Source of the DNA: a virus
Strand: one strand, 5' to 3'
Length of the DNA stretch: 41,815 nucleotides
Virus record (IMG/VR): IMGVR_UViG_3300023184_005978
Coordinates: 1-41,815 of that record
The notes beneath the pieces are model-generated. The model did no database searches. It was not told where the DNA came from and saw nothing but the letters and a program-made list of their open reading frames with translations. The position numbers were made by a program, and so were the translations under genes. Shown one piece after another: positions 1,265 to 22,001 of this stretch; position 1 is the first letter of the stretch; every line of letters begins with the position of its first letter.

Positions 1265-2485
1265 TTAAATCTCTGAAGACGTTTGAAGTAACCAATCTTT
1301 TACCTCAGTAATTAATTGAGTACTGCTGTTCATAGGATCGATATCTGATGCGGCATTCCACGCAAATACTCTAGTATTTATTCCGCCAATACTTACTGGC
1401 CTCGGCAAAGTAGCAAGTTTATTTTGTGTGAAACCGAAAACAGCTGCTTTATCAGTTCTGAAGCCTGTTGCAAAGGACACAATTTGGTAAAAAGCGTTTT
1501 TGGACCAGTCTTTATTAAAGTACCTGTACTTGACATCGCCAACAGCTAAAGTGTTTCCAAAAATTAAATCGGGGTTTATTGATAAACCTGTTTCTCCTAA
1601 TACTAGTTTTCTTTTTTCAATATTGATTCCTTTAATTCCTTCAGACAAAATATTACGTAAACCATCTTCGATAATTTCTGGAGTACGAATCAGAAATGAT
1701 TTTCCTGCCTTACCGTTTAGCTTTGAATCGAATCCAAGGCTTCTAAGAATTAAAAGTGCAAGAGGCAAAACTTCAGAATATTCTGAAGCAAGTCGATCAA
1801 GTGTGATCTGAGTGTCGCCAGGTAGTAAATTTCCAACTTCCTCAAGCCGCACTAAAATTTTATGGGCTCGATTTTTGCTTAAAATTGAAATACTCAAACT
1901 TGTAGCAACCTTTAGTGCAGCAGCTTTAATAACGCGATTTAAAGGGGTGTTTTCTGTGAATTCATCAAACGTACATAAGGCTTCTGGAATTCCGCGTTGA
2001 ACATTGATTAAAGTTTCAAGCGCATGTAACTGACCTCTCACATATGGAAGTGCTTCTTCAAATTCTGAATACCCTTTTCGTAAGCCCCGTCGCAAGAGAG
2101 TTTCACTGCAAGTGACAAACCACTGCGCGAGTAATTCCAAATAATCAGTTCCGTCGTGGATTGATATGGAACTGTCCTTTATACGTGGAGCTATTGAGGA
2201 CCGTTGGACAATATATTTAAAATGAAGAGCAGGAATTTTTGGCTTAATTTTAAGCTGTAGCTCGCCAAATTGAACAATCCCAATAACATCGCGAAAAGTA
2301 ACTTTATACCGACCAACGTGCAGCATTTCAAGTCCGATAACTGATCGGTCGGCATCAGAACTTTTTGCACCCCACCAAGTACTTTTTGATGCTAGCTCAA
2401 AACCAAGGGCGCTCAGTTTTTTAGCTTCCTCATCCGAAATTTCAAGGACGCTTGCTGATGATTCAGTTAGCTCGAATTCACGCAT
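1265..2485 (-). CDS. mcrC: McrC-like subunit of a McrBC restriction system
   Basis: The 406-residue protein resembles the McrC family, the nuclease partner that joins a McrB ring and cuts DNA carrying modified cytosines. The N-terminal half carries the typical layout with a short conserved stretch (FGELQLKIKPKIP, about residues 72-84). The C-terminal half has an acidic-to-lysine nuclease pattern, with NPDLIF and GDVKYRYF at about residues 307-330 giving the D...D-x-K of a PD-(D/E)xK fold. Its ATG overlaps the last eight bases of mcrB, so the two are probably translationally coupled. The gene is AT-rich relative to the phage replication genes, which fits acquired cargo. The family call comes from motifs and partner gene. 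Confidence 0.88.
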   Translation of the reverse strand: MREFELTESSASVLEISDEEAKKLSALGFELASKSTWWGAKSSDADRSVIGLEMLHVGRYKVTFRDVIGIVQFGELQLKIKPKIPALHFKYIVQRSSIAPRIKDSSISIHDGTDYLELLAQWFVTCSETLLRRGLRKGYSEFEEALPYVRGQLHALETLINVQRGIPEALCTFDEFTENTPLNRVIKAAALKVATSLSISILSKNRAHKILVRLEEVGNLLPGDTQITLDRLASEYSEVLPLALLILRSLGFDSKLNGKAGKSFLIRTPEIIEDGLRNILSEGIKGINIEKRKLVLGETGLSINPDLIFGNTLAVGDVKYRYFNKDWSKNAFYQIVSFATGFRTDKAAVFGFTQNKLATLPRPVSIGGINTRVFAWNAASDIDPMNSSTQLITEVKDWLLQTSSEI

Positions 2486-4715
2486 TACGTTGAGTGCTTG
2501 GCCAAAATTTTTCTAATGAGTATTCATCCAAAATTTCTGGTCTGTCAAAGAAAAATTCTTCAATCAATGGAAAAACTTTGCGTTTCCATACTTGAGTGAT
2601 TTTTGAGGCGGACATGTTCTGCTGCATAAAAAAGGCGTGGCCGATCGTATGGTGTCTGTCAAGGTGAAGCATTAGTTTCTCATTTAATGCTTCAAATCCA
2701 TTTATCAAATCATCTGCAACTATTGTGTTGTTGTCAGAATGGTATTTTTTAAGAATTTCGGAGTCTGGAGTAAGTTCAAAAACTTCAAAACGTCTGCGTA
2801 AGGCGGTATCAATTGATCGTATGCTTCTATCTGCGGTATTCATTGTTGCAATGAATCTTAGATTTTTGGGTAGTGAGAACTTTCCTGAGTACTGCAATAT
2901 TGCGTGGTCATTTCGATACTCAAAAAGAAACATTAACTCGCCTAAAACTCTAGGCAGATTTGCCCTATTTGCTTCGTCAATGACAATTACAAATTCGTTT
3001 CCATCAGAGTTGATTGCCGACAGACGCTCCATAGAGTTAACTGTCTCTTTTACTACACCTGGTGTTAGCTCAAAACTGACACCACTAGATTTTGTAACTG
3101 GACGAAGTCCTTCGATAAACGATTCATACCCGTAGTTAGGGTGGAACTGAACAAAGCGAATTTGATCTTTACGGTTTCTAGTTAAGAAATCTGCAAGTTG
3201 TCTAGCCACCCATGTTTTGCTTGTACCTGGTGGACCCGCTAAGATGATTTGAGGAGAGCTACCTAATATAGACTCAACCATTTCATTTAATAAACTTTGT
3301 GGCAAGCCCGTTCTTTGAACTAGCCATTCAATTGGAAGTGGGCTAGGTAGAACGATATCAGGTGCAAATCTTGTTGCTGGTAATTGACTATCGATAACAT
3401 AGCCGAAACTGTTCTGATTCAATACGTTCTTATCAGTCGATAGTCCAGGTGCAGGACTAAAACTTTTGAATGGAATTGAAGGCTCAATTTTTTCAATAGC
3501 ACCAATTTTGAACCAAGTTTTTAAAATGTCAGTCTGCCTATCGCCTGTTGTTGTTTTATCTAAATATTCGTCATCGGTTATTTCAGGCCAGGGTGATTGA
3601 ATACCTAGTTTTCCTTTGCTGGTTACAAATTCATCAATTCTCAACTTGGCTACGAGATTACCTTGTCCGGCACTTGCATATAAATTAAAGGGGACTTTCA
3701 GTTTTTCAGCGGCAGTATTTTTAATTGGAAAGCTCCAAGGACTTGCCCAATGCCCATTCTTCTCAATTAGTTCTGAAATAGCAGAAAAATCAGATAAGAC
3801 GTCACGCCATGTTCCTATAAGGGCAACTGGGTGCTCATGCGGTAAAGCGTTTTCGACTGCTCTAGGGTTTGATTCAACGAAGCTATTGTATTTTTGTAAA
3901 AGTATTTCCAGGTCTGCAAAAAGCTCCTCATCCGATGGCATTGAATCTAGTGAATAGTATTTTGAGGCGATCGTTGAGGCTTCATACAATATGGCCTTTT
4001 TACTTTTAACTCTAGTATCTGTAGTGCCTGAGAGATCGAACTTAAATTCAGCCAAATCTAAACAGTTTTTCCTGATTTCAGCTGCTTGAGCTTTCAAAAT
4101 TTCAGCTGCTTTTTTTCTTCCGTATTCTTTTTCAATTTTGCTAACACCTTGACCGAATTTCAGGGATATGCCAGCCCCGTTTTCATGAAAGATATAAACT
4201 GGATAAGTTCCGTCTTGGGTGGTATTGGTTTCTCGTAAATCCAATAGTGAAATCCACGGAACTGCAGCCCATCCACCTTGGCCGTAGGATGAATTTACGC
4301 TTATGTTTGGTCTTGAAGTTACAGGATTTGAAGATTCAATTTCTTTTTTGGCCTGATTTAGAAGTTCGTAAATCTCATGCTTCCCAGCAAATGGCTCCCT
4401 ATTGCTAATTTCAGGATAACGTTTACTTATCTGTATCAAAATTTCTCGCAGAGAGCTATTTCGAATCTTTATGATTGAAAAACCTAACGTTGTCAAAAAG
4501 TCGTTTGATTCTTTTCCGCCTGAAAAACTACTAGTAGGAATACTTGCAGCAATTGAAATTATTTTTTTTGGAGGGTACTTTTTTTCTTGAAATTCGATCG
4601 CCCATATGTTGGCGTGATTTAGTTCCCAACTACTGAATTCTGGAGTTGTTCGGTAATTTTGATCGAAATTCAATAACGCTTCTTCAATCTGCTGACTTGT
4701 AACTGCTGGAATCAT
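2478..4715 (-). CDS. mcrB: McrB-like AAA+ GTPase/ATPase of a McrBC system
   Basis: This 745-residue protein has a C-terminal AAA+ module with Walker A GPPGTSKT (about 494-501), Walker B VIVIDEAN (576-583), the McrB signature MNTADRS (625-631) and arginine fingers ALRRRFE (638-644). McrB forms a ring, binds modified DNA through its N terminus and drives translocation for McrC. The N terminus is long: residues about 115-240 look like the MrcB_N/DUF3578 domain. Residues about 295-440 (containing GHWASPWSFPI and an L-Y-A-S-A-G-Q-G turn) could be an EVE/PUA-like modified-base reader, with lower certainty. It follows the 155-residue gene by seven bases and overlaps mcrC. Confidence 0.92.
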   Translation of the reverse strand: MIPAVTSQQIEEALLNFDQNYRTTPEFSSWELNHANIWAIEFQEKKYPPKKIISIAASIPTSSFSGGKESNDFLTTLGFSIIKIRNSSLREILIQISKRYPEISNREPFAGKHEIYELLNQAKKEIESSNPVTSRPNISVNSSYGQGGWAAVPWISLLDLRETNTTQDGTYPVYIFHENGAGISLKFGQGVSKIEKEYGRKKAAEILKAQAAEIRKNCLDLAEFKFDLSGTTDTRVKSKKAILYEASTIASKYYSLDSMPSDEELFADLEILLQKYNSFVESNPRAVENALPHEHPVALIGTWRDVLSDFSAISELIEKNGHWASPWSFPIKNTAAEKLKVPFNLYASAGQGNLVAKLRIDEFVTSKGKLGIQSPWPEITDDEYLDKTTTGDRQTDILKTWFKIGAIEKIEPSIPFKSFSPAPGLSTDKNVLNQNSFGYVIDSQLPATRFAPDIVLPSPLPIEWLVQRTGLPQSLLNEMVESILGSSPQIILAGPPGTSKTWVARQLADFLTRNRKDQIRFVQFHPNYGYESFIEGLRPVTKSSGVSFELTPGVVKETVNSMERLSAINSDGNEFVIVIDEANRANLPRVLGELMFLFEYRNDHAILQYSGKFSLPKNLRFIATMNTADRSIRSIDTALRRRFEVFELTPDSEILKKYHSDNNTIVADDLINGFEALNEKLMLHLDRHHTIGHAFFMQQNMSASKITQVWKRKVFPLIEEFFFDRPEILDEYSLEKFWPSTQRNA

Positions 4716-4722
4716 TTGTTGC

Positions 4723-5190
4723 CTAATTTAAATTTTGATAGTAATCAAGTTTCAATTGCATCAACTCGTTTTCACAAAGTACTTGAATCAGCATGCTTAA
4801 TAATTTATTGTTTTCATTAAGGCTGCGAAATTCAAATCCACTGGAGTCCATCTGGAGTGCAACTTTGATAAATAATTTAACGATGTTGTGTACAGTATCA
4901 ACTTCGTCTTCTTCAAACAGACCAGAAGTAAACGGTAAAAATACCTGGTGGTGTTCGTCCCAGGCGAACATGATTAAAAATTTCCTAGCTTCTTTATCTC
5001 CTAAGCAATCAAAAGCTATTTCGATGTTGCGCTGTACATTTTCGTAATTTTCAAATTGTCGAAGCAACTCACTGGCTGAATGTTCTTCCACAAGTTTTTC
5101 TAGTAATGGTAAAAACTTGTCATAGTCTTGTGCCGTGTCCACAAGAAATATCCTTACTGGTTGAGCCAGTTGGTCGATTGTTTCAGCCAT
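4723..5190 (-). CDS. Uncharacterised 155-residue protein, first gene of the McrBC operon
   Basis: I do not recognise this family. It is an acidic, mostly helical-looking protein without a signal peptide or membrane segment. It has a central aromatic patch (MFAWDEHHQVFLPF, about residues 74-87) and Leu/Asn-rich C-terminal helices. It starts the three-gene minus-strand operon and ends seven bases before mcrB, so it is very likely co-expressed with McrBC. A role as accessory or regulatory subunit is inference from position. Its start lies 105 bases from a divergent regulator gene. Confidence 0.75.
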   Translation of the reverse strand: MAETIDQLAQPVRIFLVDTAQDYDKFLPLLEKLVEEHSASELLRQFENYENVQRNIEIAFDCLGDKEARKFLIMFAWDEHHQVFLPFTSGLFEEDEVDTVHNIVKLFIKVALQMDSSGFEFRSLNENNKLLSMLIQVLCENELMQLKLDYYQNLN

Positions 5191-11783: not shown

Positions 11784-13043
11784 TTAATCTATAAAAGTCT
11801 TTTCCGTCTTAAAGGTTGCAATGCCCTCGGCGACCTCAAGGGGCCCGCTGGCAAAGCGAACCTGAACCCCTAAAAGCTCTGAACTGTGGATCAATTCGTC
11901 AAGTTTTTCTTCAAGCGGGAATAGCTTTAGCCCCTTTTCAAAGGTGCTGACCAAGATGAGTTTCTTCGACGTCCTTTTTTTCATTCGGTCTACAAAACAT
12001 AGCTCCATCATTTTGTTTTGAAGTGATCTGCGAAGCACTCGCATCTCGGTATTTCTGTGAATTGTTATCACTTGAATTGCTCGGTCACCATCAAAGTAAT
12101 TAACGTGTTGTGATATTGCGCCTGTTTGAATTTTTTGATTAAAGTGTTCGGTTGGAATAAAGTGATCGTTGCTTGCAAAAAACTTTACGGCTGCCCAAAA
12201 GTTATTTCCAATTTCTATATCGTAATCTTCATCAGTTTCAAACTCATTGGTATTTGGTCGAGCGGGTGGTAATGGGCGGAACTCCACCAGATCTGCAACT
12301 ATTGGACCACGTGAGGCAAACAAGCCTGTTCGTTTGAGCGATGCACTTGAAAGAAGTGCGTTTTTAACTGGTCCTCCAATGGTCATCGATTCAGGTTCGT
12401 GTGATTTGCCGCCAATAGCGATTGCATTGCTTGAAAGCAATCCACCAATTCCTTCTGTGTGAAGTTGATTTCCACAATGGGCGCAAATCCTTGTCAAGTC
12501 AGGATTTTTGTATCCGCATTTCTTGCATGGCGTGCCAGTCAGTAGGCCGGCTATGCCTAAAGCCCTTTGCTGGGAATTAATAATGGGTTGCTCGGGTGGT
12601 TCGTAAAGTGACCACATTGTGCTTGGCTCTGCTCTCCAAGCAAGTAGCTTGTCAGCGATTGGCGCGCTGTACTTTTCTTTGTACTCGGCAGCCATCCCAG
12701 CAAGTAGCTCTTCTTCTTGCTCGGGTGACATGTCTGGAGGCGCGATGGTGAACTGGCCATCTGGGTAAAGCTCATACCCGCGTTTGTGGTCAATGTCATC
12801 ACGCATAAACCACCACATCGTTTCCCATGGACGACTTGTTAGTTCGGCAATGGCAGCAAGCTGCTCATCAGTCGGATTGGCGCGGTTTTTAAGGTTTGAT
12901 TCCCATTGACTTGCTAGCGAATCGTTCAGGGGCGTGCTTAGATGCAGCTTTTTACTGACTGCAAGGATAAAGTCCTTCTGAGTCAGCCCCAATCGCTTCC
13001 TGGTGTCTTTGATTTTCCCTGCCACATTGATTAACTTAGGCAT
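11784..13043 (-). CDS. Repressor candidate: helix-turn-helix, zinc ribbon, unknown C-terminal domain
   Basis: This 419-residue protein occupies the classic cI position, divergent from a Cro-like gene. Residues about 8-72 form an XRE helix-turn-helix (RLGLTQKDFILAVS, then SLASQWESN). A zinc ribbon follows: Cys173-x2-Cys176 and Cys187-x2-Cys190. Residues about 280-415 form a mixed alpha/beta domain (FWAAVKFFAS; RAIQVITIHRNTE; KKLILVSTFEKG) that I do not recognise. There is no LexA/S24 self-cleaving peptidase, so induction must work differently from lambda. It is monocistronic, with its own terminator. The role as lysogeny repressor is inferred from position and the DNA-binding domain. Confidence 0.75.
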   Translation of the reverse strand: MPKLINVAGKIKDTRKRLGLTQKDFILAVSKKLHLSTPLNDSLASQWESNLKNRANPTDEQLAAIAELTSRPWETMWWFMRDDIDHKRGYELYPDGQFTIAPPDMSPEQEEELLAGMAAEYKEKYSAPIADKLLAWRAEPSTMWSLYEPPEQPIINSQQRALGIAGLLTGTPCKKCGYKNPDLTRICAHCGNQLHTEGIGGLLSSNAIAIGGKSHEPESMTIGGPVKNALLSSASLKRTGLFASRGPIVADLVEFRPLPPARPNTNEFETDEDYDIEIGNNFWAAVKFFASNDHFIPTEHFNQKIQTGAISQHVNYFDGDRAIQVITIHRNTEMRVLRRSLQNKMMELCFVDRMKKRTSKKLILVSTFEKGLKLFPLEEKLDELIHSSELLGVQVRFASGPLEVAEGIATFKTEKTFID

Positions 13044-13054
13044 AAGTTGTGTGT

Positions 13055-13103
13055 AAAAGTGGAATAGAGTAGAAGTATAAGTACAAAAAAGTAGTGAAAA
13101 GTG
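13055..13103. promoter_or_regulatory. Repeat-rich divergent control region
   Basis: The 113-base gap between repressor candidate and Cro-like gene holds AAAAGTG at 13055-13061 and 13097-13103, and a related AAAAGTAGTG at 13087-13096, all on the plus strand. These are candidate operator half-sites. The A/T-rich palindrome AATAT-TTGA-ATATT follows (13116-13129). No convincing minus-strand promoter could be fixed by eye. Confidence 0.4.
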
Positions 13104-13120
13104 TTTTTTGCCGAAAATAT

Positions 13121-13149
13121 TTGAATATTAGTTGTAAATCCACTAAAGT
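13121..13149 (+). promoter_or_regulatory. Candidate early-right promoter, possibly leaderless transcript
   Basis: TTGAAT (13121-13126) and TAAAGT (13144-13149) are 17 bases apart, each with four of six consensus bases. The -10 box ends seven bases before the ATG at 13157, so transcription would start at or next to the start codon. The only Shine-Dalgarno-like stretch is GGGG four bases... before ATG at very short spacing, which fits a leaderless message. Moderate evidence only. Confidence 0.35.
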
Positions 13150-13156
13150 TTGGGGC

Positions 13157-13366
13157 ATGACTGAGCACCAAATCCTTTCAAAACTAGGCGGTCCAAGCCG
13201 AATTGGACGCCGTTTGGGGGTCAAGCCCCAAGCCGTTTCGGGCTGGAAAAGTCGTGGGATTCCCATGGACCGTATACCCAGCCTACTGCGTATGGCAAAG
13301 GAAAAGGGGCTCAACATCGGCCCAGAAGCACTGCGTCCAGACCTGGACTGGAGTGGTTTTAGGTGA
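13157..13366 (+). CDS. Cro/YdaS-like DNA-binding protein
   Basis: The 69-residue protein reads as a small Cro/YdaS-type helix-turn-helix: GGPSRIGRRLGVKPQAVSGW holds both helices (about residues 10-29), followed by KSRGIPMDRIPSLLRMAKEKG. The open frame reaches back to 13094, but ATG at 13157 starts the recognised domain and fits the promoter. It is the first gene of the rightward early operon, divergent from the repressor candidate, and would act as the lytic switch. It overlaps the next gene by GTGA. Confidence 0.8.
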   Translation: MTEHQILSKLGGPSRIGRRLGVKPQAVSGWKSRGIPMDRIPSLLRMAKEKGLNIGPEALRPDLDWSGFR

Positions 13367-13554
13367 GAGAAATTCCAATCAGCCTGTCAATGGAAGATTT
13401 GGAGCTTCTTGGACAAGGTGGAACTTTAGGTTTTGATGAGCAAGGCTACATCATCACTTTGAGGGCCGACTCGAGCGCTGTCACAGCGTTCCAGCAGCAC
13501 GTCCAAGCTGCAATTTTAAAACTGCTCGAACCCGTCAACCCGATCAAACACTAA
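13363..13554 (+). CDS. Small early phage protein of unknown function
   Basis: A 63-residue protein starting with GTG that overlaps the Cro-like stop (GTGA), so it is likely coupled. It has a compact alpha/beta pattern (REIPISLSMEDLELLGQ, then LGFDEQGYIITLRA, then a C-terminal helix). It is not recognised, and no catalytic motif is visible. Confidence 0.6.
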   Translation: MREIPISLSMEDLELLGQGGTLGFDEQGYIITLRADSSAVTAFQQHVQAAILKLLEPVNPIKH

Positions 13555-13596
13555 CCGAGTCGCGCGGTTCGCGGTGCTATTTTTTGACTGTTTATC

Positions 13597-13797
13597 ATGG
13601 CTATTGCTCGTTCTGAGTACCTGCGTGATCTCTATGAAGACGCGCAGGTTGTAACTAACAACCCCGAAATTATTTCTGCATTGATCCTGAACGACGCCCT
13701 CAACGGCTGTCGCAAAGCACTGCTTGATATTGCTGAAACAAATCGTTTGATCGCCAATGAGCTTGGCGCAATCGCTGACGCAGCGAGTCAAACATGA
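13597..13797 (+). CDS. Small early phage protein of unknown function
   Basis: A 66-residue, largely helical acidic protein. It starts after a 42-base gap without a strong ribosome site and its stop overlaps the primase start as ATGA. A tight link to the primase gene suggests a replication accessory role, which is inference. Confidence 0.6.
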   Translation: MAIARSEYLRDLYEDAQVVTNNPEIISALILNDALNGCRKALLDIAETNRLIANELGAIADAASQT

Positions 13798-16256
13798 TCG
13801 CCCGTCCCCAAGCCTTGCCGGTTAATTTCGGAGGTATACCCGACGACATTCGTGCCCACCCAGACTGGGTTTTGTGGGGCTACATCTTTGAAGACGGTGT
13901 CTGGAAGAAGATGCCTTATCAACTCAACGGCGATAGAGCATCAACAAGTGACCCAAAGACTTGGACCAGTTTTGAAGAGGTTTGGGATTACGCAATGCTC
14001 AACCCAGCATATGGCGTTGGCATAGTACTCACCCAAAACATCGATGGCATTGACCTGGATGATTGCCGTGATGAGAGTACTGGTGAACTTACAGAAATTG
14101 CCAACAAAACTTTAAGCCAAGTTGATGGCTACGCCGAGGTCAGTCCATCAGGAACAGGTATCAAGCTGTTCACGATTTCCAACTTGGCTGCTTCTTCACA
14201 AGTAAAGGGCGTCAAAGACAACCTTGGTGAGCAAGAAACGCAAATCGACATTGAGCTGTACAAGCACGGCACTGGGCGTTACTTCACGGTCACAGGTCAT
14301 GCACTTAACGGCCACAATGCGTTGCCGATGTTTGAGCAAGACGTTGGCTGGCTTGCAAGCATGACGGGTGAACAAAAAAACACAGATGTCATTGGAACCG
14401 ACGATGAGATGGCATTGGCTAATCTCAAAGCACCCATCGAGGGCTGGGACGCTGATCGCATCAGGGATGAAATCGCGCCATACCTTGACCAGTCGATGCA
14501 CTACAACGAATGGCTCAAAGTTGGCCAAGCACTGCATCACCAGTTCGATGGCGGTGACGAAGGCTTGGAGCTTTGGCATGAGATGTTTGCTCAGTCACCC
14601 AAGAAAAACCCAAACCGTAACTACGAAGATAACAAGTGGAAGTCTTTCAATTGCAAAAAATCTACAGGTGTCGTGACCCTTGGCTGGATCATTAAGATCA
14701 CAAAGGTTGCGCGCGAGGATGCTCAAGAGCAGCAAAAGCGGGATGCCGTCGAACTTTCAAAAAAACTGATCGAAGACTGTACCGATGACATGGCGCTTCG
14801 CACCAAAGTCGCCAAGGCTATTTGTCTAGATAAGCACCTTGATGTAAACCAAAAAGAAATATTGGTGGCCACTTGGAACGTGAAGCACAAAGCGCTTACA
14901 GGCGCGAAGCTGCCAACTAAAACAGTTCGCGAACTGCTTGGTGTTAACTCCCAGGTTGTGCCAACTGGTGGCTCATCAAATGCACCTGCTTGGGTAAAGC
15001 CATGGGTCTATGTGACTGACGTTGATAAGTTTCTCAACCTTGAATCCAAACAAGAGGTCACCAGCAAGGGTTTTAAAGGTATGTACAACCGATACATGCC
15101 AACCAACTTTTTTGGTGTTCGTGAGCAAGCTGATTTGTTTGCGCTTGAAGAGTGGCGCATTCCAGTTGCTGCTCACAAATCCTATATGCCGGCTTGCGGC
15201 TCAATGTTCACCCTGTTTGGAAAGCTCTGGGTCAATCTGTACCGCGTTGGCTCGGAGCCAGAGATGCCCGCGCAACTCAGTGCAGAAAACCTAGAAGCCA
15301 TTGAGCTTGTTCAAAACCATTTCACAAAGTACATCAAGAATGAGCGGGAGAGGGGCATCTTCATGTCATGGGTCGCCCATAACGTGCAGCGCCCAGGTGT
15401 GAAGATTCGCTGGACTCCCTATCTGCATGGACCGCCTGGTGACGGCAAAAGCTTCTTTGGTGAGTTGCTTGGCCACTGCATGGGCGGTCAAAACGTGCGC
15501 TCCCTTAATGGCTCGACGCTTGAGAGCAACTTCACCGATTGGGCGATGGGCTACGCCCTCACAACCATTGAAGAGATGAAGCAGCACGGTCATAACCGGT
15601 TTGATGTGATGAACCGCTTGAAGCCTTTCATCACAAACACTGAAGTTGAAATTCATCCAAAGGGCAAGCCCAGCTATGTGGCGCCTAACTCAACGAATTA
15701 CTTGGTGCTTTCAAACTATTTGGATGGCGCTCCAGTTGAGGACGATGATCGGCGGTTCATGTTCATCAGCTCATCCATTGGGCTTGCCGAGGTTAAGCGC
15801 ATGACCGATGAGGGGTACTACAAGAAGCTTTTCATTGCGATTCAAAACAATGCGGGTGCACTGCGCCAATGGTTCTTAAGCTATCCCTTGCATGAGGAGT
15901 TCAAAGCCGATGGACGGGCTCCACACACTGCCACTAAAGACACGGTGGTTGAGATGAGTAAGTCCGAGTTGGACATCTTGACCGAGGAGTTGATTGAGGG
16001 TGGTGCGGTTGGTGTTCACAAACAGGTTGTTTCATCACAGCACCTTTCAAGAGCCCTTCGGGCGAAGACTGATGAACCATTTCAGACCACTCGGGTCAAC
16101 CGAATGTTGACCGCCAAAGGGTTCAGATTCCTGACAAGAAAGTGGTGGAACGGTGAGGCATGTCGAGTCTGGACGCTGCAAGGCGAGGACATGTCTGTCG
16201 ATGAGGCGATCAAGTTACTTGATTCAACCACCGGCATGGATTTTTTAGGAGTCTAA
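13794..16256 (+). CDS. Primase-polymerase/helicase (PriCT_2 and DUF5906 type)
   Basis: The 820-residue protein has the layout of NrS-1-like phage primase-helicases. Residues 1-190 form a prim-pol domain with the metal-binding GIDLDD (85-90) and SPSGTGIK (117-124). About 215-290 is a primase C-terminal (PriCT_2) domain with WLKVGQALHHQF. The C-terminal superfamily 3-like helicase has Walker A GPPGDGKS (546-553), an acidic TTIEEMKQ as Walker B, and a later sensor/arginine region (EDDDRRFMFI). In the prim-pol motif, a histidine is usual where Lys124 stands, so primase activity is less certain than helicase. It precedes the iteron cluster, where it could open the origin. Confidence 0.92.
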   Translation: MIARPQALPVNFGGIPDDIRAHPDWVLWGYIFEDGVWKKMPYQLNGDRASTSDPKTWTSFEEVWDYAMLNPAYGVGIVLTQNIDGIDLDDCRDESTGELTEIANKTLSQVDGYAEVSPSGTGIKLFTISNLAASSQVKGVKDNLGEQETQIDIELYKHGTGRYFTVTGHALNGHNALPMFEQDVGWLASMTGEQKNTDVIGTDDEMALANLKAPIEGWDADRIRDEIAPYLDQSMHYNEWLKVGQALHHQFDGGDEGLELWHEMFAQSPKKNPNRNYEDNKWKSFNCKKSTGVVTLGWIIKITKVAREDAQEQQKRDAVELSKKLIEDCTDDMALRTKVAKAICLDKHLDVNQKEILVATWNVKHKALTGAKLPTKTVRELLGVNSQVVPTGGSSNAPAWVKPWVYVTDVDKFLNLESKQEVTSKGFKGMYNRYMPTNFFGVREQADLFALEEWRIPVAAHKSYMPACGSMFTLFGKLWVNLYRVGSEPEMPAQLSAENLEAIELVQNHFTKYIKNERERGIFMSWVAHNVQRPGVKIRWTPYLHGPPGDGKSFFGELLGHCMGGQNVRSLNGSTLESNFTDWAMGYALTTIEEMKQHGHNRFDVMNRLKPFITNTEVEIHPKGKPSYVAPNSTNYLVLSNYLDGAPVEDDDRRFMFISSSIGLAEVKRMTDEGYYKKLFIAIQNNAGALRQWFLSYPLHEEFKADGRAPHTATKDTVVEMSKSELDILTEELIEGGAVGVHKQVVSSQHLSRALRAKTDEPFQTTRVNRMLTAKGFRFLTRKWWNGEACRVWTLQGEDMSVDEAIKLLDSTTGMDFLGV

Positions 16257-16340
16257 CTTGTCAGCGACTCAACTTGTCAGACATCTTGTCAGAGCACCTT
16301 TTCAGAAGAGAAATGCTTATTTCCTGACAAGCCTGACAAG
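16257..16340. repeat. Iteron cluster CTTGTCAG/CTGACAAG, candidate replication origin
   Basis: The 164-base gap after the primase gene has CTTGTCAG at 16257-16264, 16273-16280 and 16285-16292, and the reverse form CTGACAAG at 16324-16331 and 16333-16340. More copies lie nearby: CTGACAAG at 16131-16138 inside the primase gene and a 7-of-8 match at 16428-16435. An A/T-rich stretch at about 16366-16394 could be the unwinding element. Iterons, an A/T stretch and a neighbouring helicase gene fit a phage origin. The copies may instead be operators or pair as hairpins. Confidence 0.6.
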
Positions 16341-16420
16341 TTTTACAGGTTGCTCACATGTAGTAACTTTTTTTCCCAAAACAAAAAATACATATGTTGA
16401 CGACTTGAAAGGCCCTTGAC

Positions 16421-16696
16421 ATGTCTGGTTGTCAGGAAATCGATGTTGAAAGGTATTTGGTCAAGCGCGTTAAAGCGCTGGGTGGCCAATGTTTTAAATG
16501 GGTCAGTCCGGGTCATGCCGGTGTACCCGATCGAATTGGTGTATTGCCACAAGGGCAGGTGTTCTTTGTGGAGGTTAAGCGGCCAGGCGCTAAGCCGACA
16601 AAGCTGCAACTTCACACCTTGGAAGTTTTAACGCGGTTGGGCTGCCGAGCAGTCTGGCTAGATTCAAAGGAGGCAGTTGATGAATTTCTCACCTAG
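16421..16696 (+). CDS. VRR-NUC domain nuclease
   Basis: This 91-residue protein is a stand-alone VRR-NUC domain. Conserved features are GVPDRIG (34-40; the PD), then FFVEVKRPG (48-56; Glu51-x-Lys53), an alpha/beta body and a terminal helix. Such phage enzymes cut branched DNA or Holliday junctions. It precedes the SNF2-type helicase with a 17-base overlap, a pairing common in phages. No strong ribosome site is visible at ATG, and one iteron-like sequence lies within the first codons. Confidence 0.93.
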   Translation: MSGCQEIDVERYLVKRVKALGGQCFKWVSPGHAGVPDRIGVLPQGQVFFVEVKRPGAKPTKLQLHTLEVLTRLGCRAVWLDSKEAVDEFLT

Positions 16697-17978
16697 GCCG
16701 TATCAGAGCTTGGCTGTAAAACGGATGGTCGATCAGCCAGCACATCTTTTGGCGCTCAGGATGGGTGCCGGCAAAACTGTGATCATGTTGCTTGCCATTA
16801 AAGCCATGAAGGCTAAAAAGGTCTTGGTTGTTGCTCCCAAACGGGTTGCCGAACTGGTTTGGCATACCGAGGCAGCAAAGTGGAATCAGACTAAGCACTT
16901 CAAAGTTCAGCGTGTACTTGGTAACGCTGCAGCCAGAAAAAAAGCTTTGGCTGCTGATGCGGATATTTATGTCATCAACCGTGAGAACTTCAGTTGGTTG
17001 GTGGGGGAGCTACCAAATTGGCCATTTGATTGTGTCGTGATCGATGAGAACAGGGGTTTCAAGGATCGCTCCAGTAAAAGCTGGAAGTCACTCAAAAGTG
17101 TCAGGGACAAGACTAAGCGTTTGTACATCCTGAGCGGAACCCCAGCGCCGAACTCATTGCTAGAGCTTTGGCCACAGATCAGCATGCTTGACTGGGGTAG
17201 GCGCCTTGGCCGCTCACTCACTGCTTACCGGGACAAATGGTTTGTGCCTGATAAGCGAAACGGACATGTTGTTTATTCCTGGTCGCTTAAAACAGGTGCA
17301 GCGCAAGAAATTCATGCCGCCGTGGCCGACATCATGCTCAGCGTTGAAAGTGACATCGTTTTGCCAGATCGGATCGACAACGTTGTGTCGGTGAGCTTTG
17401 ACATGACCGAGTACGAAGAGATGAAAGAAGAGATGATGGTCGAGGACATCGTTGCGGTTTCCGCGGGCGTCCTGGCCGGCAAGCTGGCCCAGATGGCAAA
17501 CGGGGCGGTCTACAACGAGAGCAGGGCTGTTAGGCATATTCACGATGCAAAGCTTGATGCCTTGGAGGAGATCGTTGACCAGGGCGAGCCAGTTCTTTGC
17601 TTAACCAGCTTTCAACACGACCAGGCTCGAATCCTGGAGCGGTTTCCAGAAGCCGTGGTGTTTGACGGAGAGCCATCTTTAAAAGCTTGGCAAAAAGGTT
17701 TAGTTCCTCTGCTCTTAATGCACCCAGCCTCTGGTGGCCATGGCGTTGATGGCCTTCAGGTGGGCGGCAATGTGATTGTTTGGTTTGGCTTGCCTTTTAG
17801 CCTGGACTTGTATGAGCAAGCAAATGCCAGATTGCACAGAACGGGTCAAAAGAATGGGGTTGTGGTTCACCACCTGGTGGCCATCGACACGATTGATGAA
17901 CAAATTATGGAAGTGCTTGCGACCAAAGGTGACATGCAGCAAGCGCTTTTGGATGCCGTAAAAAAGGAATTCGCATGA
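16680..17978 (+). CDS. SNF2-type superfamily 2 DNA helicase
   Basis: The 432-residue protein has motif I LRMGAGKT (26-33), motif II VVIDENR (119-125), motif III SGTPAPN (152-158), and the C-terminal motif VI ARLHRTGQ (383-390). Motif II reads DENR rather than the DEAH/DESH usual in the family. ATG at 16680 is preceded by a strong AAAGGAGG site; a TTG one codon earlier is less likely. It may remodel branched DNA or act with the VRR-NUC nuclease encoded upstream. It overlaps the next gene by ATGA. Confidence 0.92.
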   Translation: MNFSPRPYQSLAVKRMVDQPAHLLALRMGAGKTVIMLLAIKAMKAKKVLVVAPKRVAELVWHTEAAKWNQTKHFKVQRVLGNAAARKKALAADADIYVINRENFSWLVGELPNWPFDCVVIDENRGFKDRSSKSWKSLKSVRDKTKRLYILSGTPAPNSLLELWPQISMLDWGRRLGRSLTAYRDKWFVPDKRNGHVVYSWSLKTGAAQEIHAAVADIMLSVESDIVLPDRIDNVVSVSFDMTEYEEMKEEMMVEDIVAVSAGVLAGKLAQMANGAVYNESRAVRHIHDAKLDALEEIVDQGEPVLCLTSFQHDQARILERFPEAVVFDGEPSLKAWQKGLVPLLLMHPASGGHGVDGLQVGGNVIVWFGLPFSLDLYEQANARLHRTGQKNGVVVHHLVAIDTIDEQIMEVLATKGDMQQALLDAVKKEFA

Positions 17979-18466
17979 CTACAAAAGAGAGAATGGTTCG
18001 CAGCCAGACTTCAAGCAACCTTGGCGAAGCTGTCAACGGTGAGTTTGGCGACATCGACATTGTCAGAGCGACTGGGATGGTTGGGCAGTCCAATCCGATT
18101 GGTGTGAGTCTGTGGCGGCTTAAGTACGCGGGTGATTCAGCCGAGTTTCCCAAAGTCGTCACGGCCCTTGCTGAAATGCTGGCCAAGCGAAATGTTAAAT
18201 ACACAGATGCCTTGCTTTTGGCATTCAACGCTGTAAAGCACTATGTTGATGATGTTTGCAAGCCTTGTGTCGGCAGGGGCTACGACATCATTCCAGGCAC
18301 ACCAGTTCTAAGCGACCAGATTTGCACGCATTGCCGAGGGGCTGGGAGAGCACCCTTTGAGCACACAGGCGACGAGTCGGAGTGGCTTGAGGTGACCATC
18401 TCCCGGATGGAAAGGGAAGTTGCCGGGGCTGTGATGAAGAAGTTGGCTGCCGAGTTGGATTTTTAA
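17975..18466 (+). CDS. Zinc-finger protein, Q antiterminator candidate
   Basis: The 163-residue protein has a helical N-terminal half and a DnaJ-like zinc module: CKPCVGRGYD, 13 residues later CTHCRGAGR. This pattern appears in lambda-Q/Q21-like antitermination proteins, and this gene is the last in the rightward early operon, as Q is. Downstream lies a cargo block and then a promoter with two terminators close behind it. The DNA-binding and RNA polymerase contacts of Q cannot be read here, so other zinc-finger early proteins remain possible. Confidence 0.45.
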   Translation: MTTKERMVRSQTSSNLGEAVNGEFGDIDIVRATGMVGQSNPIGVSLWRLKYAGDSAEFPKVVTALAEMLAKRNVKYTDALLLAFNAVKHYVDDVCKPCVGRGYDIIPGTPVLSDQICTHCRGAGRAPFEHTGDESEWLEVTISRMEREVAGAVMKKLAAELDF

Positions 18467-18478
18467 GTCTGAGCCACC

Positions 18479-18540
18479 GCAGATTTTTTTCCGTACCGCA
18501 ATTGCGGTGACAACCTCTCGTAAATCTGCTTTATTTTTTA
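18479..18540. terminator. Nested inverted repeats between convergent genes
   Basis: GCAGATTT (18479-18486) pairs with AAATCTGC (18522-18529). Inside it is the perfect 14-base palindrome ACCGCAATTGCGGT (18495-18508). A T-rich run follows on the plus strand (18530-18540), and an A-run on the left gives T on the minus strand. It lies between the stops of the 17975 and 18549 genes and likely ends transcription from both sides. Confidence 0.55.
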
Positions 18541-18548
18541 TGGTGCAT

Positions 18549-19376
18549 TTATTTTGCTGGCTCAATAAAATTTTTGTTAGCAGCAATTTTATAAAACAAC
18601 TGCTGTACAGCTACAGGAAATTCTTGAGCAGCTTTAAGGCAACTTTGCGTACCTTCCATAGTTGAAGTTGCAAATTGGTGAGAATGCGAATAGTTAATTT
18701 TTCTCCCACTTTCAAGTTTCAAGTCTAGCTCTAGATCCCAACTTCCGCTTGGAAATGTAGAAGATGAAATTCTTTTGATATCAGCAGTTAACAACGTACC
18801 TTGTTCTGAATACAAATCCGCTGCTTGTAGCTCTGAATTAAAAGCATTTTCAATAAATTTGTTTATAGGAATATTTTGAGCAGAAACGTATATTGGGTTT
18901 GTAGACAAGCGACAGTTGATTGACAAAGATTCAGGCTCTGAAAATGAAACAAAGCGCATTTTTGGAAAAGTTCCATTTTTTAAAAGTACGCCATTTAAGT
19001 CGGAAACCTTATATTGGACAGGGGAAATTTTTGCTGCATTTTCTAATCGAAAGGCGTAATTCTGTTTGGAAACTCGTTGAACGGGTACCCCGTCTTCTAA
19101 AACAGGTTTGAATTGGCACTTAACTAATGCGCTCCTTGCAGCTTCGTCCAAGCGTCTAAAACCAGACGATTTTTCAACTTCAGCGCTGATCACTTTTCCA
19201 TCAGTCCCCACTAAGTACCTAAGAGTTACCGTACCTTCTTCCTCTAGCCTTTTTGATGCGCTTGGATAATCTGGCCCGACACATTTTGGTTGTGTTTCAG
19301 GTACTGTCTGTCCAATGGCCGTCAAAGCCCAAAAATTGCTTGCTAAAACTAGCAAAAGATAAAACAGTTTTTTCAT
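18549..19376 (-). CDS. Secreted protein with TonB C-terminal-like domain
   Basis: The 275-residue protein starts with a signal peptide (MKKLFYLLLVLASNFWALTA-IGQ). Residues about 30-115 match the TonB C-terminal fold: YPSASKRLEEEGTVTLRYLV, DGKVISAEVEKSSGFRRLD, and KCQFKPVLEDGVPVQ. There is no proline-rich spanning part, so it is not a normal TonB. The C-terminal 150 residues (beta-rich) are not recognised. It is the last gene of a four-gene cargo operon. I infer a periplasmic or envelope protein of the lysogen; function unknown. Confidence 0.75.
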   Translation of the reverse strand: MKKLFYLLLVLASNFWALTAIGQTVPETQPKCVGPDYPSASKRLEEEGTVTLRYLVGTDGKVISAEVEKSSGFRRLDEAARSALVKCQFKPVLEDGVPVQRVSKQNYAFRLENAAKISPVQYKVSDLNGVLLKNGTFPKMRFVSFSEPESLSINCRLSTNPIYVSAQNIPINKFIENAFNSELQAADLYSEQGTLLTADIKRISSSTFPSGSWDLELDLKLESGRKINYSHSHQFATSTMEGTQSCLKAAQEFPVAVQQLFYKIAANKNFIEPAK

Positions 19377-19386
19377 TTCTAAATTC

Positions 19387-20196
19387 TCACAATTCCAAGT
19401 TTTTTTCAGGCAGGCTACATGCCGTAATTAGTGTTAAAGTTTTTTCATCACTAGCTTTTGATATTGGTTTAATCAAAGATAAGGAAGAGTTAAAAATTTG
19501 AATAGGTATTGATTCTTTGTACTCTTTAAAAGCAAGCGTTCTAAGATCAAAGGTTCGATAAGGATAGGTTGCTGTTTGATGGATAAGTTCTTTGTTTAAA
19601 GATTTCAATCTTGCGATATTCCCATCAGCAAGTCTTCTCATTTCCTGAAATGCTAGATTACTTGCGCAAAAAAACTCTTCCGTCTGGAGGACTTCACATT
19701 CATAAAAAAAGTTTGGATTGAATTTGTTGTAAAGCTCAACTACAAGCAATTTAAACTCTTCAGATTGAAGAAAATTCTGTTCTTGTTGAAATAATCCCAG
19801 CCGGAAAATATTCTGACTTTTATTTACCCTCACTAAGTAAAGTGTTGCAGGTATTTTTATTGAGCTGGATTCTTTAGCCCTATCACTAAATTCTTCAGCC
19901 AGTAATTCATTTGCGTTTTGACGTAAAACTTCAATTGCATCGTTAATTGAAATTGAAAAAAATTCACGATTTCCGTTGTAACGTCTATTTTGAAAAAAGT
20001 TGTGAGCGTAAGCTTCTAGTCCAGCTGGATCACGGCACTCCAGTTGGTATTCGATACAAAATTCAATCGGAACCCCGGTAGCAAGGGAGAGTTCTTTGAC
20101 TCGGCCTTCAACTGTGTTTAATGTGTAGCCGATTTTTAGTAGGCCAGGCATTGCTGGGTTACTCAATACATACACACGGCCTACAGGAGCTTTCAT
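19387..20196 (-). CDS. GIY-YIG-like (T5orf172 type) protein
   Basis: The 269-residue protein begins with GRVYVLSNP (6-14) and LLKIGYT (19-25), the degenerate GIY...YIG of the T5orf172/MUG113 family. It also has Arg32 in GRVKEL and Glu61 in GLEAYAH as likely catalytic residues. Residues about 110-269 are not recognised. Related domains occur in DNA nucleases and in phage anti-phage cargo. It is cytoplasmic-looking, in contrast to its three envelope-type neighbours, and sits ten bases before the TonB-domain gene. Confidence 0.8.
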   Translation of the reverse strand: MKAPVGRVYVLSNPAMPGLLKIGYTLNTVEGRVKELSLATGVPIEFCIEYQLECRDPAGLEAYAHNFFQNRRYNGNREFFSISINDAIEVLRQNANELLAEEFSDRAKESSSIKIPATLYLVRVNKSQNIFRLGLFQQEQNFLQSEEFKLLVVELYNKFNPNFFYECEVLQTEEFFCASNLAFQEMRRLADGNIARLKSLNKELIHQTATYPYRTFDLRTLAFKEYKESIPIQIFNSSLSLIKPISKASDEKTLTLITACSLPEKNLEL

Positions 20197-20219
20197 TTTT
20201 TAAAGGATTTGTTTTTTTG

Positions 20220-21053
20220 TTACAAAGGTCGCTTTAGTTCATCTAAAAGCGCCACATTTGAATGTAGATATATTTCTTTTTCAAACGTCGAATCCGAGCG
20301 GTAGTGGCTCGTTGAAGTACCTCCCCCGTCGTAGTTAAAGACTGAATAGATGGCAAACTCGTTTGTGCGTTTAATGTGAATGCCGTAAAGGTTATCCGGT
20401 CGTGAACGGTAAATCATTTTCACTGCGAAGAAATCGTTGTCTAGCATTCCAGTTTCTTTGTCGCGCATGGTGTAGTAAGCATCCATGGCTTGGTCTGTTC
20501 GCATAATTAACTTCGTATCTTCAATTCGTTCTACGTATTCCAATAAATGCTCAAGCTTGTCTGGAACATGTTCAGCAGTAAAGTTAAAATCAATTTGGTA
20601 TTTCGCATCCTGCCAAGATGCGTTACTTTGGAGGGAAAGGGCAACGAAAGTAGCGAGATCTCTATAATTTGCTTCAAGTTTCTCGTAGCTGTTCCACGAA
20701 ACTGCATCTGGATACAAAACATACTCTTTTGAACCAATGGTGTCGAAGTCTGCGTAAAACGGATATTCTTTACTCAACTCTGACAACCTTTTATTGATCT
20801 CCTCCAGACGCCAAGACTTAAAGGAATTGAACTCTGAGCAAAGTTCTTTATACAGCTTGACATAGCGCTGGGGATCTCGCCAAATTAGTATGTTTGCTAG
20901 TTCTCGGCGCAAAGTAAACAGGTAATTTGCTCGATCTATTGCTTGGTTCTTCTCCATTTCCTTGATCTCAGGCTGAGCTGCCTTAGCAAACAACTTGAAT
21001 CCCAAAAAGAAGCCGACTACAAGCGCAACGAGTCCAACGAAAAAAAGCTCCAT
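20220..21053 (-). CDS. Membrane-anchored protein of unknown function
   Basis: The 277-residue protein has one N-terminal membrane helix (ELFFVGLVALVVGFFLGFKL, residues 2-21). A charged helical linker, probable coiled coil (about 25-110), and a C-terminal mixed region with strands (VKMIYRSRP, IHIKRTNEFAIYSVF) follow. The family is not recognised. An upstream GTG adds three residues, but ATG at 21053 is well placed behind GGAAGG. It is second in the cargo operon, between a lipoprotein and the GIY-YIG-like gene, and would anchor a cytoplasmic or periplasmic domain at the inner membrane. Confidence 0.7.
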   Translation of the reverse strand: MELFFVGLVALVVGFFLGFKLFAKAAQPEIKEMEKNQAIDRANYLFTLRRELANILIWRDPQRYVKLYKELCSEFNSFKSWRLEEINKRLSELSKEYPFYADFDTIGSKEYVLYPDAVSWNSYEKLEANYRDLATFVALSLQSNASWQDAKYQIDFNFTAEHVPDKLEHLLEYVERIEDTKLIMRTDQAMDAYYTMRDKETGMLDNDFFAVKMIYRSRPDNLYGIHIKRTNEFAIYSVFNYDGGGTSTSHYRSDSTFEKEIYLHSNVALLDELKRPL

Positions 21054-21085
21054 TAGAGACACCTTCCGAGCATTTAAAAATTATG

Positions 21086-21448
21086 TCAATTACAAATGGA
21101 TTGATATTGGCCAGAAGCTGCGTTGTATGTTGTTGTGCAACGAACTGGTTGAGGTAAAGTTGGCAAAGGTGCAGCAGGGGCATAAGTTCTTTGGCCAGCT
21201 TGTAATAGTTGCAATGAATTGCCAAGACCTTGAAGAGCAGCAGCCCTTGCTTGAACATATTCCCTTGTTGTGCAATGTGTGACCCCCCTTTTGTCTAGTT
21301 CGTTTTTGAGGTCAGGGTGCATGAACATTGGATTAAGCGGGGCAGAATAATTATCGCAAAGGATGGAACTGGAGGTTGTTTTGATTTGCTCTGGCGTTAA
21401 CGCGCAACCAGACAAACAAGCAATAAGAGCAAGGGTGTAGATTTTCAT
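21086..21448 (-). CDS. Small lipoprotein
   Basis: The 120-residue protein has a lipoprotein signal: MKIYTLALIACLSGC, with lipobox L-S-G-C and Cys15 as the lipidated residue. The mature part holds four more cysteines, an Ala/Leu/Gln-rich helix and a proline segment. No family was recognised. It is the first gene of the cargo operon, about 20 bases from the predicted start of transcription. A role in changing the lysogen's surface is possible but not shown. Rz1-type spanin is unlikely, because no lysis partner lies nearby. Confidence 0.75.
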   Translation of the reverse strand: MKIYTLALIACLSGCALTPEQIKTTSSSILCDNYSAPLNPMFMHPDLKNELDKRGVTHCTTREYVQARAAALQGLGNSLQLLQAGQRTYAPAAPLPTLPQPVRCTTTYNAASGQYQSICN

Positions 21449-21475: not shown

Positions 21476-21504
21476 AACATATTGTTTCAATTACTATAAG
21501 TCAA
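21476..21504 (-). promoter_or_regulatory. Predicted promoter of the cargo operon
   Basis: On the minus strand TTGACT (21499-21504) and TATGTT (21476-21481) are separated by exactly 17 bases. Transcription would start near 21469, giving a leader of about 20 bases before the lipoprotein ATG with a GAGAG ribosome site. It points away from the late operon, so the block can be expressed in the lysogen. Confidence 0.6.
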
Positions 21505-21617
21505 CGTTGCCTTAAATCAAAATGCTGGCATTTATGGCGGGTTCAATTGTTTTGGATGTTGTGGGCTCGCCATTTGAAACCAGGGCTTTCAAATCGCTAT
21601 TTTCAGGTCGTTTCACC

Positions 21618-21646
21618 CTTGACCGTACGATTTCATTTCTGTTAAA
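21618..21646 (+). promoter_or_regulatory. Candidate late promoter
   Basis: TTGACC (21618-21623), 17 bases, then TTAAAT (21641-21646) on the plus strand. The expected start near 21653 is only about 35 bases before two tandem terminators, an arrangement like lambda pR' with tR'. This is the only candidate promoter I found in the 304-base gap at 21449-21752 that would drive the late genes. The hexamers are moderate. Confidence 0.4.
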
Positions 21647-21686
21647 TTTCCCCGCAGGAGAGCCGCGTCTGCAGAACTCCCTAGTT

Positions 21687-21709
21687 GCCGCCTAACCAGC
21701 GGCTTTTTT
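21687..21709 (+). terminator. First of two tandem terminators before the late genes
   Basis: GCCGC-(CTAACCA)-GCGGC hairpin at 21687-21703 followed by six T (21704-21709). It stands shortly after the candidate late promoter and before the first late gene. Confidence 0.7.
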
Positions 21710-21712
21710 ATG

Positions 21713-21735
21713 GCCGCCTTTTGGGCGGCTTTGTC
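21713..21735 (+). terminator. Second tandem terminator before the late genes
   Basis: GCCGCC (21713-21718), a short T-rich loop and GGCGGC (21724-21729), followed by TTTGT. It begins four bases after the first terminator's T-run. The T-run is weaker than that of the first one. Confidence 0.55.
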
Positions 21736-21752: not shown

Positions 21753-22001
21753 ATGGAAACAATCACGATTGAGATCAACGATGACGGCTCAGTTCGGGTG
21801 ACTGAAGATGCGGGCGATCAAACCACCGAGCCAATGACTCAAGAGTTTGACTCTGTTGGCCAAGCTGCTCAGGTGTTGATGGAAATGCTGCAGCCAAGCG
21901 AAGAGCAAAACGAAGCAGCGCCTGATCAAGAAGCTTCACCAGAGCGTATGTGGGATGAAGAAGCAAATCTCAGGTCAAAAGAGCAAAAAACCTACGCCTA
22001 G
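21753..22001 (+). CDS. First late-region gene; acidic phage protein of unknown function
   Basis: The 82-residue protein is very acidic (rich in Glu, Asp, Gln) with a strand-like start (METITIEINDDGSVRVTED) and a probably disordered tail. It is not recognised. It has a GGAG ribosome site and opens the late operon just after the tandem terminators. Proteins of this kind often precede small terminase genes in podovirus-like prophages. Confidence 0.65.
   Translation: METITIEINDDGSVRVTEDAGDQTTEPMTQEFDSVGQAAQVLMEMLQPSEEQNEAAPDQEASPERMWDEEANLRSKEQKTYA

What the first reader, a model, noticed from the sequence alone, without database searches (positions are those of the whole stretch)
18549..21448. 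Four-gene cargo operon with its own promoter: TonB-domain protein, GIY-YIG-like protein, membrane protein and lipoprotein
The block runs against the late genes, has a good sigma-70 promoter and ends at a palindromic terminator. Three products are envelope-directed and one is nuclease-like. That mix suggests a multi-part system acting across the envelope, such as superinfection exclusion or defence. None of the genes other than the GIY-YIG-like one and the TonB domain was recognised.
Basis: partly seen in the sequence, partly recalled or inferred. Interest (0 to 1): 0.65.

Follow-up and report, generated by a model that had tools for sequence, protein, structure and literature searches.

The report
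Swappable prophage envelope cargo cassette
A temperate phage carries, between its late-gene switch (Q) and its late promoter, a small gene cassette that relatives replace with entirely different, mostly envelope-directed genes; this looks like a lysogen-expressed slot for keeping rival phages out, but the function itself is inferred, not shown.

Summary
The four reverse-strand genes are real and tightly spaced. They do not form one fixed four-gene system. Three relatives show what is there. L102 is 85% identical through the antiterminator-Q-like gene and 83% from the late promoter onward, yet its 3.1-kb stretch between them holds five unrelated reverse-strand genes. L015 and L016 keep the window's promoter and lipoprotein gene (dN/dS 0.03-0.04) but lose all similarity at the lipoprotein's stop codon, where a different membrane-anchored protein follows. 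So this is an exchangeable cargo slot between Q and the late promoter. The lipoprotein is the longer-resident head, and an AT-rich trio is the newer cargo: membrane-anchored orphan, T5orf172 GIY-YIG nuclease, and periplasmic TonB_C protein. The TonB protein is an apparently new fusion: signal peptide, TonB_C, then a domain normally found as a free-standing ~180-aa lipoprotein absent from Pfam. Its orientation and conserved promoter suit expression in the lysogen. Superinfection exclusion or defence is the best reading (about 0.5). It rests on location, turnover and protein types, not on any functional test.

The parts
17975..18466 (+). Q-like late antitermination gene; left anchor of the cargo slot
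   Evidence: phrog_127 anti-termination protein Q-like, E 1.7e-5, with two CxxC-type pairs; 91% identical in L102
18487..18490 (.). left edge of the exchangeable segment as seen against L102
   Evidence: 85% DNA identity ends at 18487, 21 nt after the Q stop
18497..18510 (.). perfect palindrome ACCGCAATTGCGGT at the 3' end of the cassette; not a canonical intrinsic terminator
   Evidence: sequence; fold -19.9 kcal/mol, z -1.9, no U-run on the minus strand
18549..19376 (-). periplasmic fusion protein: signal peptide + TonB_C (aa 35-111) + domain of a ~180-aa lipoprotein family (aa ~114-275); GC 38%
   Evidence: PF03544 E 9e-17; C-domain matches Citrobacter plasmid pLNU-11 E 6e-6 and Aliarcobacter/Caballeronia plasmids; family present in 13 of 398 Pseudomonadota genomes, none fused to TonB_C in the 7 loci checked
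19387..20196 (-). T5orf172-type GIY-YIG protein, nuclease residues kept, C-terminal half (aa 109-269) unknown; GC 36%
   Evidence: PF10544 E 8e-15, PADLOC PDC-S57 E 1e-28 over aa 2-108; K21 I22 G23, R32, E61, H65, R72 invariant with phage relatives
20220..21053 (-). orphan protein with one N-terminal TM helix, helical middle, C-terminal beta domain; probably C-terminus in cytoplasm (positive-inside rule)
   Evidence: no family; 28-31% relatives only in Bradyrhizobium; model pLDDT 59.6
21086..21448 (-). lipoprotein of 120 aa (lipobox LSGC), four Cys after the lipidated one; shared with L015 and L016
   Evidence: 98% aa identity in L015/L016, dN/dS 0.03-0.04
21476..21504 (-). promoter TTGACT-17-TATGTT of the cassette
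   Evidence: 9/12 consensus; 41-bp core 100% identical in L015, 98% in L016, absent in L102
21573..21576 (.). right edge of the exchangeable segment as seen against L102 (against L015/L016 the edge is at 21081-21090, at the LIPO stop codon)
   Evidence: blastn breakpoints
21619..21648 (+). late promoter TTGACC-18-TAAATT with extended -10, pR'-like
   Evidence: region 88-98% conserved in three relatives
21687..21730 (+). two intrinsic terminators directly downstream of the late promoter, tR'-like, as expected for Q-dependent late expression
   Evidence: conserved in all four phages
21753..22001 (+). first late gene (82 aa), kept whatever the cargo
   Evidence: 98%, 88% and 80% identity in L015, L016 and L102

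Best explanation
This is a lysogen-expressed cargo slot of a temperate podovirus-like phage, lying between the Q-like gene and the Q-dependent late promoter, currently filled with lipoprotein - membrane protein - T5orf172 nuclease - periplasmic TonB_C fusion. Shown: the slot boundaries, the exchange of its content between close relatives, and the longer residence of the lipoprotein and its promoter. Inferred: the cassette is read from its own reverse promoter in the lysogen and works as a superinfection-exclusion / anti-phage module. In this model the lipoprotein and the periplasmic TonB_C fusion act on outer-membrane (probably TonB-dependent) receptors from the periplasmic side, as T5 Llp jams FhuA. 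The membrane-anchored protein and the GIY-YIG nuclease form a second, cytoplasmic line that could cut DNA entering at the inner membrane. Whether the genes cooperate or are stacked independently is open; the exchange pattern favours LIPO working on its own.
For: Exchange: L102 matches at 85% to 18487 and at 83% from 21573, with an unrelated 3.1-kb, five-gene reverse-strand cargo between. L015 and L016 match to the LIPO stop, then carry unrelated membrane-anchored proteins of 278 and 307 aa. The occupants are mostly envelope-type: lipoproteins in all four phages, TM proteins in all four. AT-rich cargo: trio GC 36-42%, GC3 28-45%, against core GC about 50-53%. Purifying selection on LIPO and a conserved promoter. 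The place and size fit the published definition of phage defence hotspots, 1-5 kb of high turnover between two conserved genes (PMC9122126). Tai defence genes of phi80-like phages lie predominantly upstream of the packaging module (PMC11364771). Small phage lipoproteins block TonB-dependent receptors from the periplasm (PMC9586334). The GIY domain matches the PADLOC candidate PDC-S57 and PD-Lambda-1.
Against: No protein matches a validated defence or exclusion family over its length. PDC-S57 is only a candidate and is covered over half its length. TonB_C proteins and the lipoprotein family of its C-domain are mostly chromosomal or plasmid genes of unknown role. No evidence of expression. Only four phages of the lineage show the slot. 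The host is unknown. The trio was found together only here.
Confidence: 0.5

Rival explanations
1. Lysogenic-conversion cargo for the host rather than against phages: the envelope proteins alter outer-membrane transport or surface properties (for example TonB-dependent uptake) and so raise lysogen fitness; the nuclease is an unrelated passenger.
For: The TonB_C domain and the C-domain lipoprotein family are ordinary bacterial envelope proteins. MEM relatives sit in Bradyrhizobium chromosomes and plasmids.
Against: The content turns over completely between close relatives, which is more typical of conflict genes than of host maintenance; the nuclease is unexplained.
Confidence: 0.25
2. The T5orf172 gene is a homing-type endonuclease that marks or drives exchange at a mosaic boundary; the neighbours are morons swept in with it and there is no joint function.
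For: T5orf172 genes are described as homing endonucleases lying at exchange boundaries, most often near terminase genes (PMC10448857). The slot is an exchange boundary next to terminase. A different GIY-YIG gene lies in the same interval of L042.
Against: It sits third in a tight operon, not at an edge. It lacks the Zn-finger DNA-binding domains found in 87% of phage T5orf172 homing endonucleases (no CxxC). L102, L015 and L016 show exchange without any such gene in the stretch seen.
Confidence: 0.15
3. LIPO belongs to the phage's own lysis or late programme (for example a spanin-like role) and only the trio is cargo.
For: LIPO is conserved with the late region in three phages; the trio is not.
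Against: LIPO is on the strand opposite the late genes, with its own promoter, and L102 lacks it entirely. MEM is not an inner-membrane spanin of usual size, and its C-domain is probably cytoplasmic.
Confidence: 0.07

Closest known systems
Prophage/satellite defence hotspots (P2, P4 and others; Rousset et al. 2022, PMC9122126)
   Same: small (about 3 kb) locus of total gene turnover between two conserved phage genes, several genes per occupant
   Different: another phage lineage and another place (Q to late promoter); no occupant here matches a validated system; occupants lean to envelope proteins
Tai of phi80-like phages (PMC11364771)
   Same: defence gene mostly located just upstream of the packaging module, with late genes under Q
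   Different: no sequence comparison with Tai was made; here the first late gene is kept whatever the cargo, so it does not look like a cargo-specific antidote
T5 Llp / Cor exclusion lipoproteins (PMC9586334, PMC11436027)
   Same: small cysteine-containing phage lipoprotein with its own promoter; TonB-dependent receptors as plausible target
   Different: LIPO is 120 aa with no detectable sequence relation and is not next to a receptor-binding protein gene; target unknown
T5orf172 GIY-YIG homing endonucleases (PMC10448857); PADLOC PDC-S57 and PD-Lambda-1
   Same: nuclease domain with the conserved residues
   Different: no Zn finger; 160-aa C-terminal half of unknown kind, not detectably a second GIY-YIG domain
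TonB energy transducer C-terminal domain (PF03544)
   Same: the domain itself, E 9e-17, aligning to solved TonB C-domains
   Different: signal peptide instead of a TM anchor and Pro-rich linker, domain at the N-terminus, fused to a lipoprotein-family domain

Membership tests
Phage defence/cargo hotspot | 1-5 kb of high gene turnover between two conserved phage genes | tested here: met
   unrelated 3.1-kb content between Q and the late promoter; second breakpoint after LIPO
Phage defence/cargo hotspot | occupants give phage resistance | not testable with these tools
   no validated family matched; needs plating assays
Llp/Cor exclusion lipoproteins | lipobox, small size, own expression in the infected or lysogenic cell | tested here: inconclusive
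   lipobox LSGC and conserved promoter found; expression not testable
Llp/Cor exclusion lipoproteins | sequence relation to Llp or Cor | tested here: not met
   no PHROG, Pfam or phage-record match
T5orf172 GIY-YIG nuclease domain | Pfam domain and conserved catalytic positions | tested here: met
T5orf172 homing endonuclease | Zn-finger DNA-binding domain (87% of known phage members) | tested here: not met
   no CxxC in the protein; statistic
PDC-S57 candidate defence protein | match over most of the profile | tested here: inconclusive
   E 1e-28 but only positions 2-107 of 212
TonB energy transducer | N-terminal TM anchor, Pro-rich linker, C-terminal TonB_C | tested here: not met
   signal peptide, TonB_C at aa 35-111, further domain behind it
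Plasmid/chromosomal ~180-aa lipoprotein family (C-domain of the TonB-domain protein) | homologous over the domain | tested here: met
   31.7% over 90% of the domain, E 6e-6; shared CR, EL, G-W, C motifs
Tai (phi80) | sequence relation to a Tai protein | not tested
   only the location was compared

The most novel reading that the evidence does not exclude
The Q-to-late-promoter slot of this phage lineage is a dedicated reservoir of envelope-acting exclusion modules. The window's occupant is a new multi-compartment system: outer-membrane lipoprotein and periplasmic TonB_C-lipoprotein-domain fusion tied to an inner-membrane protein and a GIY-YIG nuclease that destroys incoming DNA at its entry site.
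Probability: 0.15. Interest if true: 0.75.

Novelty: new variant of a known kind. Interest (0 to 1): 0.42.

Why it matters
It gives an anchor (Q-like gene on one side, pR'-like promoter with paired terminators on the other) by which unknown exclusion or defence cargo can be collected from related phages. It also gives orphan families and one apparently new domain fusion to test. If the envelope bias of the occupants holds in more relatives, it would point to a slot specialised for blocking phage entry.

Tried and rejected
Second degenerate GIY-YIG domain in the C-terminal half of the nuclease: suggested by eye, not supported by profile comparison (E 0.08). Whole four-gene set in other phages: none found in viral contigs, phage or plasmid records. 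Structure models: MEM pLDDT 59.6 and the TonB fusion 38.3, with no fold match at E<=0.001; LptE-type hits at E 0.30-0.38 are only a hint. Link between L102's 473-aa protein and the neighbour of a Bradyrhizobium MEM relative: suggested by eye, not supported by BLAST. RNA families in the region: none. Host: not found. More slot relatives by late-promoter pattern: only the same three contigs. Spanin role for LIPO/MEM: rejected on strand, promoter and absence in L102.

Full report
What is there. The window is a 41.8-kb virus record of a temperate phage. It has an integrase (201-1241), a DNA polymerase, exonuclease, primase, a Q-like antitermination gene (17975-18466), terminase, portal and a T7-like tail-fibre N-domain. 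Between the Q-like gene and the late genes lie four reverse-strand ORFs with gaps of 23, 23 and 10 nt. In order of transcription they encode LIPO (120 aa, lipobox LSGC), MEM (277 aa from the better start at 21053, one N-terminal TM helix), GIY (269 aa, T5orf172) and a 275-aa protein with a signal peptide and TonB_C.

Signals. The reverse promoter TTGACT-17-TATGTT (21504-21476) scores 9/12, and such sites are not over-represented in the region. Its core is 41/41 and 40/41 conserved in L015 and L016, against 92-94% identity in the adjacent LIPO gene. The palindrome at about 18497-18510 is perfect, but no U-run follows on the reverse strand and the hairpin is only weakly better than shuffles, so 'terminator' is unproven. 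On the + strand, an extended -10 promoter (21619-21648) is followed at once by two intrinsic terminators (21687-21730). This arrangement is conserved in all four phages and is the layout of a lambda-type pR'-tR' late promoter read through by Q (established knowledge of lambdoid phages). The cassette is therefore convergent with the early operon and divergent from the late promoter, so neither lytic transcript would express it in sense.

Exchange. Three near relatives carry the place. L102 aligns at 85% over 12503-18487, ending 21 nt after the Q stop, and again at 83% from 21573. Its intervening 3.1 kb holds five unrelated reverse-strand genes: a 94-aa membrane protein, a 77-aa lipoprotein, a 473-aa protein, a 119-aa TM protein and a 94-aa protein. 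L015 and L016 align at 88-90% from the portal through the promoter and LIPO, and stop aligning at positions 21090 and 21081, the LIPO stop codon. Beyond it are a 278-aa protein with an N-terminal TM helix and a 307-aa protein with a C-terminal one. LIPO is under purifying selection (dN 0.009-0.013, dS 0.24-0.46). More distant relatives carry other reverse-strand genes in the same interval, such as DUF932 proteins, and in L042 a different GIY-YIG protein. The late-promoter pattern finds no further contigs. So the unit is not a fixed four-gene system. It is a cargo slot with a longer-resident head (promoter plus LIPO) and an exchangeable trio. The trio and the other occupants are AT-rich (trio 36-42% GC, other occupants 30-42%) compared with about 50-53% in core genes.

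The proteins. GIY keeps the T5orf172 residues (K21-I22-G23, R32, E61, H65, R72). A T5orf172 nuclease has been shown to depend on a glutamate inferred to be catalytic (PMC10448857); that E61 is its equivalent is my inference. GIY matches the candidate defence family PDC-S57 over half the profile. It lacks the Zn fingers typical of phage T5orf172 homing endonucleases. MEM has relatives only in Bradyrhizobium, at 28-31% identity, sometimes next to a short protein repeating its C-terminal domain; one fragmentary relative turned up in another sampled Pseudomonadota genome. The TonB-domain protein is a new combination as far as could be searched. After TonB_C it carries a domain whose relatives are free-standing ~180-aa lipoproteins on Citrobacter, Aliarcobacter and Caballeronia plasmids and in 13 of 398 sampled Pseudomonadota genomes, none fused to TonB_C in the seven loci checked. 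Pfam has no model for them. A low-confidence model and LptE-type matches at E 0.30-0.38 only hint at an LptE-like fold.

How it probably works (inference). Location, complete turnover and protein types fit lysogen-expressed exclusion or defence cargo. Published hotspots have the same size and definition (PMC9122126), and phi80-type Tai genes sit predominantly upstream of the packaging module (PMC11364771). Small phage lipoproteins such as T5 Llp jam TonB-dependent receptors from the periplasm (PMC9586334). LIPO plus a soluble periplasmic TonB_C protein suggest the same kind of target, with MEM and GIY as a possible inner line against entering DNA. Nothing here tests that. The alternatives are host-directed lysogenic conversion and a homing nuclease with passengers.

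Verdict. Observation partly confirmed, interpretation partly supported. The firm result is the exchangeable slot and its boundaries; the function is a reasoned guess at about 0.5.

Noticed in passing
window 1265-4715 (-): A second AT-rich (38-39% GC) cargo block beside the integrase: McrC-like (PF10117, E 1e-29) and McrB-like (MrcB_N plus AAA_5) proteins, with an unknown 155-aa ORF at 4723-5190. This is a probable McrBC-type restriction system carried by the phage.
   Followed up: partly
window 21613-21735 (+): pR'-like late promoter followed by two intrinsic terminators, conserved in four phages; a handle for finding related slots.
   Followed up: yes
L042:8237-8704 (+); L029:4789-5745 and L045:7141-8355 (-): Distant relatives carry a different GIY-YIG protein or DUF932 proteins in the same Q-to-terminase interval.
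   Followed up: no
L097:9228-10696, L100:7740-8938, L101:7740-8938: In Bradyrhizobium the MEM relative lies directly behind a short TM protein (132 aa; 222 aa with an extra N-terminal part in L097) repeating its C-terminal beta domain (motif G-K-EY-S-F-YR-D-TF-K-L): an unnamed domain family.
   Followed up: partly
L112:5884-6423, L113:4851-5399, L134:3801-4337: Lipoprotein family of ~180 aa (GCSTYS...RYS...NV..L...CRGVGPIKTPDGEPF...), on plasmids and in about 3% of sampled Pseudomonadota genomes, without a Pfam model.
   Followed up: partly
L102:10163-10496: The terminase small-subunit end is inverted at the contig end, probably an assembly chimera; it does not touch the cargo slot.
   Followed up: no
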